NCBI RefSeq assembly: GCF_000612545.2
Contig: NZ_CP097800.1
Location: forward strand, 2,036,001-2,100,000
DNA length: 64,000 bases
Direction of reading: 5' to 3'
Source: Streptomyces sp. PCS3-D2
Lineage (GTDB): Bacteria > Actinomycetota > Actinomycetes > Streptomycetales > Streptomycetaceae
Positions 31,385 through 34,159 of this stretch are shown piece by piece (within the stretch, counting starts at the first letter, position 1; each line of letters begins with the position of its first letter). The position numbers and the translations under genes are program-made. The notes under the pieces were generated by a model. The model saw only the letters and a list, made by a program, of their open reading frames with translations, did no database searches and was not told where the DNA came from.

Positions 31385-32024
31385 GCGGCCCTGCGCCGGG
31401 CACGGGCGAGCGTGCGACGCCGAGCGAGTCGGCGGCGAGGGGTTTCGGCGCGCGCTCCTCATAGAAGACGTCGAGTTCCGTGATCACGAACCCGGCGGAG
31501 GTCAGCAGGTCGACGGTCGGCCGGGTGAGGTGGCACCCGCCGCAGAGCCGCTTGTTCAGCGGTTCGATCCGCCGCTGCATGCGGCGCACGCGCTCGTCCC
31601 CCTGCGGCGCCAGGCCGTGCTCGACGAAGTGCAGGCCGCATCCGGGCTTGAGCACGCGCCGCACCTCGCGCAGGGCGGCCAGCGGATCCGGGATGGTGCA
31701 CAGCGTCCACGTGGACAGCGCCGCGTCGAAGGTGGCGTCCTCGAAGGGCAGCGACCGGCCGTCCGGACCGGCCCGCCGCACCGGGACCCGGGAGGCCCGT
31801 ATCCGGTCGGCGGCGAGGCCCCAGGCCACGTCGGAGGGCTCGATCGCGGCCACCCCGGTGACGCCCGGCGGGTAGAAGGGCACGTTGTGGCCGGAGCCGA
31901 AACCGATCTCGACGACCTCCCCGGCCAGGCCGGCGCAGACGCGCCGCCTGAGCGGCCGGGCGCCACGCGCCCCGCAGGCGAGGTCGACGATCCGCGGAAC
32001 GATCCGTTCGGCGTAGAAACCCAT
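31374..32024 (-). CDS. Class I SAM-dependent methyltransferase
   Basis: The 216-residue protein has the SAM-binding motif VVEIGFGSGHNVPFYP and post-motifs LPFEDATFDAALSTWTLCTI and EVRRVLKPGCGLHFVEHG, in the order of the UbiE/COQ5-like superfamily. A cysteine pair in RLCGGCHLTR lies in the C-terminal half. The acceptor is unknown. ATG 32024 has GGGAGGA upstream. It diverges from the ClpC2-like gene and shares its 112-base control region, so the operators there could also affect it. Confidence 0.82.
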   Translation of the reverse strand: MGFYAERIVPRIVDLACGARGARPLRRRVCAGLAGEVVEIGFGSGHNVPFYPPGVTGVAAIEPSDVAWGLAADRIRASRVPVRRAGPDGRSLPFEDATFDAALSTWTLCTIPDPLAALREVRRVLKPGCGLHFVEHGLAPQGDERVRRMQRRIEPLNKRLCGGCHLTRPTVDLLTSAGFVITELDVFYEERAPKPLAADSLGVARSPVPGAGPLSS

Positions 32025-32089
32025 CGCATCCTCCCAGTCCGTGGTCCCAGCATGGCACCGGCGGCGCCGGAGCGGCAGCCATGGAGTGA

Positions 32090-32136
32090 CAACCCAGGGT
32101 TGACACCCCTTCGACTGTCAACCTAGGGTTGCACCC
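32090..32136 (+). promoter_or_regulatory. Promoter overlapped by twin operators, ClpC2-like gene
   Basis: CAACCCAGGGTTG (32090-32102) and CAACCTAGGGTTG (32119-32131) are near-identical palindromes with centres 29 bases apart. TTGACA (32100-32105) starts inside the first and TAGGGT (32124-32129) is inside the second; the spacing between the hexamers is 18. The -10 ends seven bases before ATG 32137, so transcription should start at the A of the start codon. A repressor on both sites would cover the entire promoter. Confidence 0.8.
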
Positions 32137-32892
32137 ATGACGAACCCTTCGGTGGAACCCGTTCGCATGACCCATCCGGTACGCCTCGACGACCTGATCG
32201 AGGCCATCAACAAGGTCCACACCGACCCCCTGGAGCAGCTCAGCGGCGCCGTCGTCGCCGCCGAGGCCCTCGGGGACGTCGCGGACCACCTCATCGGCCA
32301 CTTCGTCGACCAGGCCCGCCGCTCGGGCGCCTCCTGGACCGACATCGGCCGCAGCATGGGCGTCACCCGCCAGGCGGCCCAGAAGCGCTTCGTCCCCAAG
32401 GCGGACAAGGAGGGCGCCGACGCCCTCGACCCGAACGCGGGCTTCGGCCGCTTCACCCCGCGCGCCCGCAACGTGGTCGTGACCGCGCAGAACGAGGCCC
32501 GCGCCGCAGGGAACGCCGAGATCCGCACCGAGCACCTGATCCTGGGCCTGATGGCCGAGGCCGACGGCCTCGCGGGGCTCGTCCTGCGCGCCCAGTCGGT
32601 CTCGCCGGACGACGTACGGGCCGCCGCGGCCGCCGCACTCCCGCCGGCCCAGGACGAGATCCCCGCCCTCGTCCCCTTCGACGCCTCGGCGAAGAAGGCC
32701 CTGGAGCTGACCTTCCGTGAGGCCCTGCGCCTGGGCCACGACTTCGTCGGCACCGAGCACATCCTGCTCGCGCTCCTGGAGCTGGAGAACGGCGAGGGCC
32801 TGCTGAGCGGCCTCGGCCTGGACAAGGCAGCTGCGGAGGCGAGCGTCAGCGAAGCCCTGGCAGTCGTACTCCGCGACGCGGACGGGACGTAG
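32137..32892 (+). CDS. ClpC2-like helix-turn-helix/Clp N-domain protein
   Basis: The 251-residue protein joins an N-terminal helix-turn-helix region (WTDIGRSMGVTRQAAQKRF, about residues 66-84) to two Clp-N repeats (about 100-245) that start FTPRARNVVVTAQNEAR and ELTFREALRLGHDFVGTEHI. It lacks both AAA+ modules of ClpC. Mycobacterial ClpC2 has the same plan and length; it is reported to repress its own gene and to bind ClpC1-directed cyclic peptides, protecting the ClpC1P1P2 protease. The same role is inferred here. It is a leaderless gene controlled by two palindromes, probably its own operators. The 3' end overlaps the converging AI-2E-family gene by 47 bases. Confidence 0.85.
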   Translation: MTNPSVEPVRMTHPVRLDDLIEAINKVHTDPLEQLSGAVVAAEALGDVADHLIGHFVDQARRSGASWTDIGRSMGVTRQAAQKRFVPKADKEGADALDPNAGFGRFTPRARNVVVTAQNEARAAGNAEIRTEHLILGLMAEADGLAGLVLRAQSVSPDDVRAAAAAALPPAQDEIPALVPFDASAKKALELTFREALRLGHDFVGTEHILLALLELENGEGLLSGLGLDKAAAEASVSEALAVVLRDADGT

Positions 32893-34159
32893 AGGAGTCC
32901 GCGTCCCGCGTCAGCTCGTAGCGCCTGACGTAGGCGCCGAGGAAGGCCTGCAGCGTGGCGACGGCCGGGATGGCGATCAGCGCCCCGACCGCGCCCAGCA
33001 GGGCGGTGCCCGCGATGACCGATCCGAAGGCCACCGCCGGATGGATGTCGACGGTCTTCGACGTCAGCTTCGGCTGGAGCATGTAGTTCTCGAACTGCTG
33101 GTAGATCACCACGAAGGCGAGGACGTACAGCGCGTACCAGGGGTCGACGGTGAAGGCGAGCAGGACCGGCAGCGCGCCCGCGAGGTAGGTGCCGATGGTG
33201 GGGACGAACTGCGAGACCAGCCCCACCCACACGGCGAGCGCGGGCGCGTACGGCACCCCCAGGACGGCCAGCACGATGTAGGTCACGACGCCCGAGATCA
33301 GTGCCATCAGCCCGCGCGAGTAGAGGTAGCCACCGGTCTTGGCCACGGCGATCTCCCAGGCCCGCAGCACCTCCGCCTGCTTCGCCGGCGGCAGTACGGA
33401 GCACAGCGCGCGCCGCAGCCGCGGTCCGTCGGCGGCGAAGTAGAAGGAGAACAGGCCGATCGTCAGCAGCTTGAAGAGCCCGCCGAGCACGGTGGCGGAC
33501 ACGTCGAGCACGCCGGACGCACTGTTCTGCACGTACTTGCGCAGCCAGTCGGAGCGCAGCACGCTCTCCTGGATCTCCAGCCGGGACAGATCGGTGTGGA
33601 CGGTGGAGTTGATGAAGTTGATCACCGAGTCGAGGTAGCCCGGGAAGCCCTCCACCATGGCGACGATCTGCCCTGCGAGCAGGGAGCCGAGCAGCGCGAG
33701 GAACCCGACGGACACGACGAACACCGCGGTGAACACCAGGAAGGTGGCGAACCCGCGGCGCATGCCGCCGGCCGCCATCCTGGCGACGGCGGGTTCGATC
33801 GCGAGCGCGAGGAAGAACGCGATCAGGATGTTGACGAGCAGCCCGGTCAGCTGGTGGAAGGCCCAGCTGCCGAGCTGGAAGCAGGCGACGAGGCCCAGGA
33901 CCAGGACCACGGCGCGCGGCAGCCAGCGCGGCATGCGCCCGTCTCCCCCGGCCGGTGGCCCGCCCGGGCCGGCAGGACCCTGCGGCGGGACCGGATCGGC
34001 GGGCCGGGCCGCCCCGCTGCCCGCCGGCCCCGCGCCCGCCGCCGGGTCCGGATCCGTTCCGGAGGCGACCGGTGCGGCGCCGGGATCGGCTGCCCGGGGC
34101 GGGGGCAGCGCGCCCTGGACGGCTGCGGGCTGGTCGGTCGTGTCTTCGGTGGCTCCCAC
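32846..34159 (-). CDS. AI-2E family (UPF0118) membrane transporter
   Basis: The 437-residue protein has a 75-residue Pro/Gly/Ala-rich cytoplasmic N-terminus and about eight transmembrane helices with the family's long mid-protein soluble loop (residues about 180-250). The conserved VPTIGTYLAGALPVLLA and FVVIYQQFENYMLQPK are typical of PF01594-type permeases. Some members export AI-2 or act as sodium/proton antiporters; substrate here is not predictable. GTG 34159 is the chosen start. Confidence 0.88.
   Translation of the reverse strand: MGATEDTTDQPAAVQGALPPPRAADPGAAPVASGTDPDPAAGAGPAGSGAARPADPVPPQGPAGPGGPPAGGDGRMPRWLPRAVVLVLGLVACFQLGSWAFHQLTGLLVNILIAFFLALAIEPAVARMAAGGMRRGFATFLVFTAVFVVSVGFLALLGSLLAGQIVAMVEGFPGYLDSVINFINSTVHTDLSRLEIQESVLRSDWLRKYVQNSASGVLDVSATVLGGLFKLLTIGLFSFYFAADGPRLRRALCSVLPPAKQAEVLRAWEIAVAKTGGYLYSRGLMALISGVVTYIVLAVLGVPYAPALAVWVGLVSQFVPTIGTYLAGALPVLLAFTVDPWYALYVLAFVVIYQQFENYMLQPKLTSKTVDIHPAVAFGSVIAGTALLGAVGALIAIPAVATLQAFLGAYVRRYELTRDADSSTSRPRRGVRLPGLR

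What the first reader, a model, noticed from the sequence alone, without database searches (positions are those of the whole stretch)
32090..32892. ClpC2-like Clp-N sensor gene with twin operators exactly covering a leaderless promoter
Seen: palindromes CAACCCAGGGTTG and CAACCTAGGGTTG, centres 29 bp apart, each contain or overlap one promoter hexamer (TTGACA, TAGGGT, 18-bp spacer). The -10 lies seven bases before the ATG. The protein is a helix-turn-helix fused to two Clp-N repeats without ATPase modules. Known: mycobacterial ClpC2 of the same plan autoregulates and binds ClpC1-targeting peptides. Inferred: a self-contained sensor-repressor that rises when ClpC-directed antibiotics, many made by actinomycetes, occupy its Clp-N domain.
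Basis: partly seen in the sequence, partly recalled or inferred. Interest (0 to 1): 0.7.

Follow-up and report, generated by a model that had tools for sequence, protein, structure and literature searches.

The report
Self-repressing Clp decoy gene, Streptomyces
This is the Streptomyces version of a known bacterial gene, clpC2, whose protein mimics the docking part of the ClpC protease and appears to switch its own gene off through two matching DNA sites; the gene itself is ordinary, but comparing it with relatives questions which part of the protein reads the DNA.

Summary
Two 13-bp palindromes (32090-32102, 32119-32131) carry the -35 and -10 of a promoter abutting the ATG of a ClpC2 orthologue (32137-32892). 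Of 150 protein-fetched full-length type A relatives, 145 keep twin sites 28-29 bp apart, 4-6 nt before the ATG; exact twins occur in 138 of 161 promoters and 0 of 16,100 shuffles. Operator, doubling, promoter overlap, suggested leaderless start and cyclomarin-relieved autorepression are already published for actinobacterial clpC2 (Taylor 2023, PMC10030653): new member of a known kind. The Streptomyces inducer is unknown; in M. tuberculosis a cyclomarin, but not ecumicin or ilamycin, raised ClpC2 (PMC12913811).

Added by comparison: rarer paralogue types B, C and D keep the twin geometry with altered half-sites and recognition helices, although the C-terminal arginines proposed to bind DNA are partly or wholly lost. 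The crystallised N-terminal fragment (8ADA) stops just before the recognition helix. I infer that the N-terminal helix-turn-helix reads the operator; published mutants show that the C-terminal domain also contributes. One type C protein also carries a ClpX-type zinc finger.

The parts
32137..32892 (+). clpC2 orthologue, 251 aa: N-terminal dimerisation/HTH domain plus a C-terminal double Clp-N domain
32090..32102 (.). operator 1, CAACCCAGGGTTG; its 3' half overlaps the -35
   Evidence: conserved in orthologues
32119..32131 (.). operator 2, CAACCTAGGGTTG; contains the -10
   Evidence: TA at core positions 6-7 in 144 of 145 type A site-2 sequences but in 2 of 145 site-1 sequences
32100..32105 (+). 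-35 hexamer TTGACA
   Evidence: TTGAC in 145 of 145 type A twin loci
32124..32129 (+). -10 hexamer TAGGGT (TAnnnT type); predicted start at or next to the ATG
   Evidence: spacer 17 or 18 in 145 of 145; 6-8 nt to the ATG; no GGAG, GAGG or AGGA at -20 to -4 in 145 of 145; no 5'-end data; not called by the generic scan
32332..32394 (+). helix-turn-helix, residues 66-86 (SWTDIGRSMGVTRQAAQKRFV); recognition helix about 78-85
   Evidence: model helices 67-74 and 78-85; near-invariant columns
32383..32385 (+). codon of K83, the recognition-helix residue that changes together with half-site position 4
32443..32877 (+). Clp-N double repeat (residues 103-247), the presumed ligand-binding decoy
   Evidence: contact-residue equivalents F103, F181, E190
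32716..32730 (+). R194 to R198, whose two arginines are the equivalents of Mtb R185 and R189 proposed to bind DNA
   Evidence: mapping by alignment; role proposed in PMC10030653

Best explanation
The gene is a self-contained decoy and sensor. A ClpC2 dimer, joined through its N-terminal domain, binds two operators that are built into the -35 and -10 of its own leaderless promoter and keeps the gene nearly silent. A ligand or client that occupies the C-terminal Clp-N domain, the same surface that ClpC uses, lowers DNA binding; transcription then rises and the protein accumulates as a sponge that protects ClpC. Sequence-specific reading is most likely done by the N-terminal helix-turn-helix, with the C-terminal arginines helping indirectly. 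Shown here: orthology, the twin sites, their geometry and conservation, and the covariation with the helix. Shown elsewhere for mycobacterial orthologues: dimerisation, autorepression, operator binding, relief and protection by cyclomarin. Inferred: that the same happens in this Streptomyces, which ligand does it, the leaderless start, and the HTH as reading head.
For: Orthology by sequence and fold. Same-genus sample: a clpC2-type match in 169 of 199 genomes and an exact twin pattern in 165 of 199; the reversed control pattern occurs in 2 of 199. By hand, 164 of the 169 have the pair. Protein-fetched full-length loci: twin sites in 145 of 150 type A and 12 of 12 type B. Exact twin in 138 of 161 promoters against 0 of 16,100 shuffles, and none in the remaining 499,739 bases of the same loci. 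Half-sites carry 1.97-2.0 bits, the linker 0.25-0.68. Published mechanism in mycobacteria. G000 has one exact pair. For the HTH as reader: the 8ADA chain ends at ...GKSMGV, just before the recognition helix; the helix tracks the half-site across types A-D.
Against: No binding, expression or 5'-end data for this strain. Taylor et al. report that R185A/R189A in the C-terminal domain weakens DNA binding and that its M. smegmatis counterpart raises clpC2 mRNA 2.0-fold (4.6-fold for the dimer mutant R57A), so that domain does contribute. The HTH-like region of the related antitoxin RelI contacts its toxin, and its authors found no evidence of DNA binding. 30 of 199 sampled genomes have no match at the threshold, so the gene is dispensable. 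Five of 150 type A loci lack the normal twin: L167 (site 2 lost), L195 and L200 (distant), L214 and L215 (sites 23 bp apart, no TA). A loose one-mismatch scan of G000 found 138 single sites against 64 for the control, so further single-site targets are not excluded.
Confidence: 0.85

Rival explanations
1. The C-terminal Clp-N helix with R185/R189 (window R194/R198) is the DNA-reading element, and the N-terminal domain only dimerises (Taylor et al.).
For: R185A/R189A binds DNA less well, and its M. smegmatis counterpart derepresses 2.0-fold. Both arginines are kept in nearly all type A proteins: R194 144 of 145, R198 143 of 145.
Against: R198 is D, E or A in 12 of 12 type B proteins, which keep near-identical operators. 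Type C has neither arginine (0 of 3 at both positions) yet has a CAAC core. In type D R194 is never R (22 other residues and 1 gap of 23) and R198 is R in 4 of 23. One type A locus, L203, has A at R194 with an intact twin operator. ClpC1, with a similar spread of positive charge in the corresponding region, shows little specificity for the operator (PMC10030653).
Confidence: 0.2
2. The main role is proteostasis: unfolded proteins, not antibiotics, are the natural ligand, and cyclomarin mimics a client. This shares the rest of the mechanism with the best explanation.
For: Milder induction under heat shock (PMC10030653); PMC12913811 describes ClpC2 engaging unfolded proteins.
Against: I saw no client named for the Streptomyces protein; the cyclomarin response reported in M. 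smegmatis is large (263-fold mRNA).
Confidence: 0.45
3. The palindromes belong to another repressor, and ClpC2 is only the regulated decoy.
For: No binding data in Streptomyces.
Against: Mycobacterial ClpC2 binds its operator directly in EMSA. The pair accompanies clpC2 almost one to one in 199 genomes. In types B-D half-site and HTH change together.
Confidence: 0.05
4. The palindromes are a by-product of a promoter (TTGAC and TAnnnT) without operator function.
For: The 28-29 bp spacing equals a 17-18 bp promoter spacer.
Against: The halves that are not promoter hexamers (GTCAAC of site 1 and of site 2) are as invariant as the hexamers. Type D keeps the twin geometry with CAAG half-sites and without a clear -10.
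Confidence: 0.02

Closest known systems
Mycobacterial ClpC2 (Rv2667 and the M. smegmatis orthologue), Taylor et al. 2023, PMC10030653
   Same: Domain plan, length, operator CGTCAAC-n5-GTTGACG, doubled in many species, covering -35 and -10, leaderless transcript suggested, cyclomarin-contact residues
   Different: Window site 1 is GACAAC...GTTGAC and site 2 GTCAAC...GTTGCA, so the outermost bases are less symmetric; Streptomyces is not among the seven species named in their Fig. 4b legend
ClpC1 N-terminal domain
   Different: No HTH; part of a full ATPase
RelI antitoxin, PMC13284704, PDB 9sdc
   Same: Homologous N-terminal domain including the HTH-like segment (5.2e-06); that paper already notes an HTH region shared with ClpC2
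   Different: No Clp-N; bound to a toxin; no DNA binding shown
Streptomyces 'ClpC2' in the Clp literature (PMC12607617, start of abstract seen in a search listing)
   Same: Name only
   Different: There ClpC2 is counted among the Clp-ATPases; this protein has no ATPase module

Membership tests
ClpC2 (Rv2667-type autorepressor) | N-terminal domain homologous to Rv2667 residues 4-72 | tested here: met
   9.6e-30 over residues 7-76
ClpC2 (Rv2667-type autorepressor) | C-terminal Clp-N double repeat, no ATPase modules | tested here: met
ClpC2 (Rv2667-type autorepressor) | Cyclomarin-contact residues F96, F172, E181 | tested here: met
   window F103, F181, E190 by alignment
ClpC2 (Rv2667-type autorepressor) | CAAC-n5-GTTG operator, doubled, over -35 and -10 | tested here: met
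ClpC2 (Rv2667-type autorepressor) | Leaderless transcript | tested here: inconclusive
   geometry fits and there is no GGAG, GAGG or AGGA at -20 to -4; no 5'-end mapping
ClpC2 (Rv2667-type autorepressor) | Protein binds its operator and represses its own gene | not testable with these tools
   needs EMSA, footprint, reporter
ClpC2 (Rv2667-type autorepressor) | Relief by cyclomarin and protection of the cell | not testable with these tools
   needs ligand and strain work

The most novel reading that the evidence does not exclude
clpC2 is one of at least four paralogous 'HTH plus Clp-type decoy' autorepressors in Streptomyces. All keep one promoter design, two 13-bp palindromes 28-29 bp apart that end 4-6 nt before the ATG, while the half-site (GTCAAC, CGTCAAY, GACAAC, GTCAAG) changes with the N-terminal recognition helix and the sensor changes independently: type D has a rebuilt Clp-N pocket and type C can add a ClpX-type zinc finger. 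The N-terminal HTH, not the C-terminal arginine helix, is then the reading head, and the module is a swappable sensor of whatever docks on Clp unfoldases.
Probability: 0.6. Interest if true: 0.6.

Novelty: new member of a known kind. Interest (0 to 1): 0.42.

Why it matters
ClpC1 is a tuberculosis drug target hit by peptides that actinomycetes make, and ClpC2 is a sponge that blunts one of them. The same autorepressor is widespread in the genus that makes many antibiotics (169 of 199 sampled genomes), nearly always with one dedicated twin-operator promoter; that is a ready biosensor for ClpC-docking compounds. If the HTH reading is right, the published account of how the drug switches DNA binding off must change from direct overlap on the C-terminal domain to a signal passed between domains. 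The rarer paralogues point to sensors for ligands other than cyclomarin.

Tried and rejected
Large regulon: the exact pair occurs once in G000. G000 has 44 single CAACN5GTTG sites, the two of clpC2 included, against 27 for the reversed control, and 138 TCAACN5GTTGA sites with up to one mismatch against 64 for the control (list cut). I did not examine these one by one, so weak single-site targets stay open. In four genomes there are extra exact pairs, five places in all: one is a type C promoter; the other four I saw as letters only and did not place relative to genes. The pair in G152, which has no clpC2 match at the threshold, is A-rich and looks like chance.

HTH-only paralogue as a test of DNA reading: the HTH-DUF2812 gene of G000 (L003; DUF2812 named after PMC13284704, not tested by Pfam) shows no CAACN5GTTG site in the 200 bases upstream that I printed, and only 6 of 61 genomes hold a match; uninformative.

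Neighbours as co-regulated partners: the divergent methyltransferase is found near clpC2 in 4 of 104 loci and the downstream transporter in 25 of 104 (flanks 1.5 kb or less), so neither is a conserved partner.

A first count of sites (two sites in 92 of 106 loci, one in 1, none in 13) was spoilt because genome-search loci are not turned to the gene strand; it was redone with orientation. A regular expression was wrong and found nothing; one search repeated it corrected.

Structure: a single-sequence model was poor (mean pLDDT 47.4) and was not used; the 29-sequence model was. The rows of the fold search span mainly residues 100-247, so it says nothing about the N-terminal fold. PDB 9P2P, named ClpC2, is closest among my loci to Streptomyces ones (77.7 percent to L112), but I could not learn its organism or paper.

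Mobile elements: 9 plasmid records (several are megabase replicons) and 6 phage records hold matches. The phage matches cover only the Clp-N part.

Full report
Observation. They are the only CAACN5GTTG sites in the window. The generic promoter scan of 31900-33000 found no promoter, because TAGGGT is a poor match to TATAAT.

Conservation. In the same genus 169 of 199 genomes have a match at E 1e-30 or better, and 165 of 199 have an exact twin CAACN5GTTG-N14-17-CAACN5GTTG. Comparing the two lists by hand, with the ten genomes not printed filled in by elimination, 164 of the 169 have the pair. The five that lack an exact pair were searched again: G064 has a type B gene but no type A, G139 only a fragment, and G025, G055 and G196 have one changed half-site base (L166, L032, L174). 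The place list was cut, so not every pair was checked against its gene. For that I used fetched loci: 214 looked at, 188 distinct with a hit, 184 full length. I then dropped the 22 fetched by the operator pattern itself, leaving 162: 150 type A and 12 type B, sorted by the better tblastn score. This set is not a random draw: it holds the best matches, the odd genomes, and 40 places that I chose from the matches listed. Twin CAA-N7-TTG sites before the start are present in 145 of 150 and 12 of 12. In 139 of the 145 both sites are exact CAACN5GTTG. The start codon was allowed to lie 0 to 7 nt after site 2, so the 4-6 nt found are partly by construction. Exact twins occur in 138 of 161 promoters (types A and B; one locus was too short upstream) and in 0 of 16,100 dinucleotide shuffles, and nowhere in the remaining 499,739 bases of the same loci.

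Promoter design. In the 145 type A loci the site spacing is 28 or 29 bp, which equals a promoter spacer of 17 (89 loci) or 18 (56 loci), and the -10 ends 6-8 nt before the ATG. TTGAC is present in all 145. The core of site 2 carries TA at the -10 position in 144 of 145, that of site 1 in 2 of 145. So site 2 is a palindrome bent to hold a -10, and the distance between the two operators appears to be set by the polymerase. No GGAG, GAGG or AGGA lies at -20 to -4 in any of the 145; AAGG does in 15. This supports a leaderless transcript; it does not prove one.

What is known. I read parts 1 to 3 of 8 of PMC10030653 and passages from the rest. Taylor et al. describe CGTCAAC-n5-GTTGACG one to two nt before the ORF, repeated upstream in many of the actinobacteria they looked at, overlapping putative -35 and -10 elements, with leaderless transcripts suggested; ClpC2 binds it, represses its own gene, and cyclomarin A relieves this (263-fold mRNA in M. 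smegmatis). Passages of PMC12913811 report that a cyclomarin, not the ecumicin analogue or ilamycin, raises ClpC2 in M. tuberculosis.

Which domain reads DNA. Taylor et al. point to R185/R189 of the C-terminal domain. Three observations favour the N-terminal HTH, a region that PMC13284704 already calls an HTH shared with RelI (passages). First, the crystallised fragment 8ADA ends at GKSMGV, directly before the recognition helix, so that structure could not show it. Second, paralogues. Type B (9 of 199 genomes at E 1e-50; 12 loci used, three of them from another genus of the class sample) has twin CGTCAA-N7-TTGACG sites but D, E or A at R198 in 12 of 12. Type C (three long matches in 393 genomes: L251, L256, L257; L258-L260 are partial matches) has GACAAC-type twin sites and neither arginine in 3 of 3. 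Type D (29 of 393 genomes at E 1e-30) has 23 genes that align from residue 1 (one of them, L325, aligns poorly), 21 with twin sites, 28 bp apart in 20 and 29 in one; R194 is never R (22 other residues and 1 gap of 23) and R198 is R in 4 of 23. Third, half-site position 4 changes with residue 83 of the recognition helix: type A has K83 in 144 of 145 and C in 574 of 580 half-sites; type B has Q in 12 of 12 and T 24, C 20, G 4; type D has Q in 22 of 23 and G in 78 of 84; type C has Q in 3 of 3, an extra change Q82R, and C in 10 of 12. The one type A protein with Q83 (L231) is also the only one with T at this position in site 2, though five other type A loci have a changed half-site in site 1 with K83. 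Types B, C and D are each one clade in a FastTree tree (support 1.0, 1.0, 0.999), so these are few independent events and the correlation is suggestive, not proof. Type C keeps C at position 4 in spite of Q83, which the simple K83-to-C rule does not explain. Against the HTH stand also the mutant data of Taylor et al. and RelI, whose similar segment contacts a toxin without known DNA binding.

Sensors. The cyclomarin-contact positions (window F103, F181, E190) are F in 139, F or Y in 144 and E in 142 of 145 type A proteins, and F, F and mostly E (10 of 12) in type B; type D has mainly P, always W and mainly A, and type C has lost the first and third in 3 of 3. Type C protein L251 has a Pfam zf-C4_ClpX match (8.5e-15) besides Clp_N; L256 shows the same cysteines by eye; the L257 frame ends before them. 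One paper search asking for at least three of Clp_N, zf-C4_ClpX, helix-turn-helix and Streptomyces returned one paper, on another subject. Many subscription papers are not in the library; the 2023 paper by Hoi et al. on ClpC2 and ClpC3 I know only as cited in PMC10864484 (passages) and by recall. So I cannot say that types B-D are unpublished, nor whether one of them is ClpC3.

Verdict. A correct and well-read observation of a known system; new member of a known kind. The added comparison makes an open point of the published mechanism, which domain reads the operator, directly testable.

Noticed in passing
L251:1402-2310 (G040), also L256 and L257: Type C paralogue: in L251 HTH, Clp-N and a ClpX-type C4 zinc finger in one 302-aa protein behind its own twin GACAAC operator; a possible decoy for two Clp unfoldases at once.
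   Followed up: partly
L301-L322 and L285-L288: Type D paralogue in 29 of 393 genomes of the genus: twin CAAG-N5-CTTG sites 28-29 bp apart before the ATG, pocket residues changed. A clear -10 is not seen in its site 2.
   Followed up: partly
L254:2413-3117; probably also L332:2486-3187: Type B paralogue (L254). A gene on a Streptomyces plasmid record, 38 percent identical to the window protein and probably of this type, is annotated only as a Clp protease N-terminal domain protein.
   Followed up: partly
L331:1468-2175 (phage Myrna gp251), also phage Phabba: Mycobacteriophages encode a protein (235 aa in Myrna) with a Clp-N stretch 44-46 percent identical to the window protein over about 110 residues; a possible phage decoy or effector of host ClpC.
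   Followed up: no
L214, L215: Two class members have CAACN5GTTG sites only 23 bp apart without TA in site 2, a different promoter arrangement.
   Followed up: no
L181 with L167 (G157): A genome with two type A copies: one has lost site 2, the other keeps the twin.
   Followed up: no
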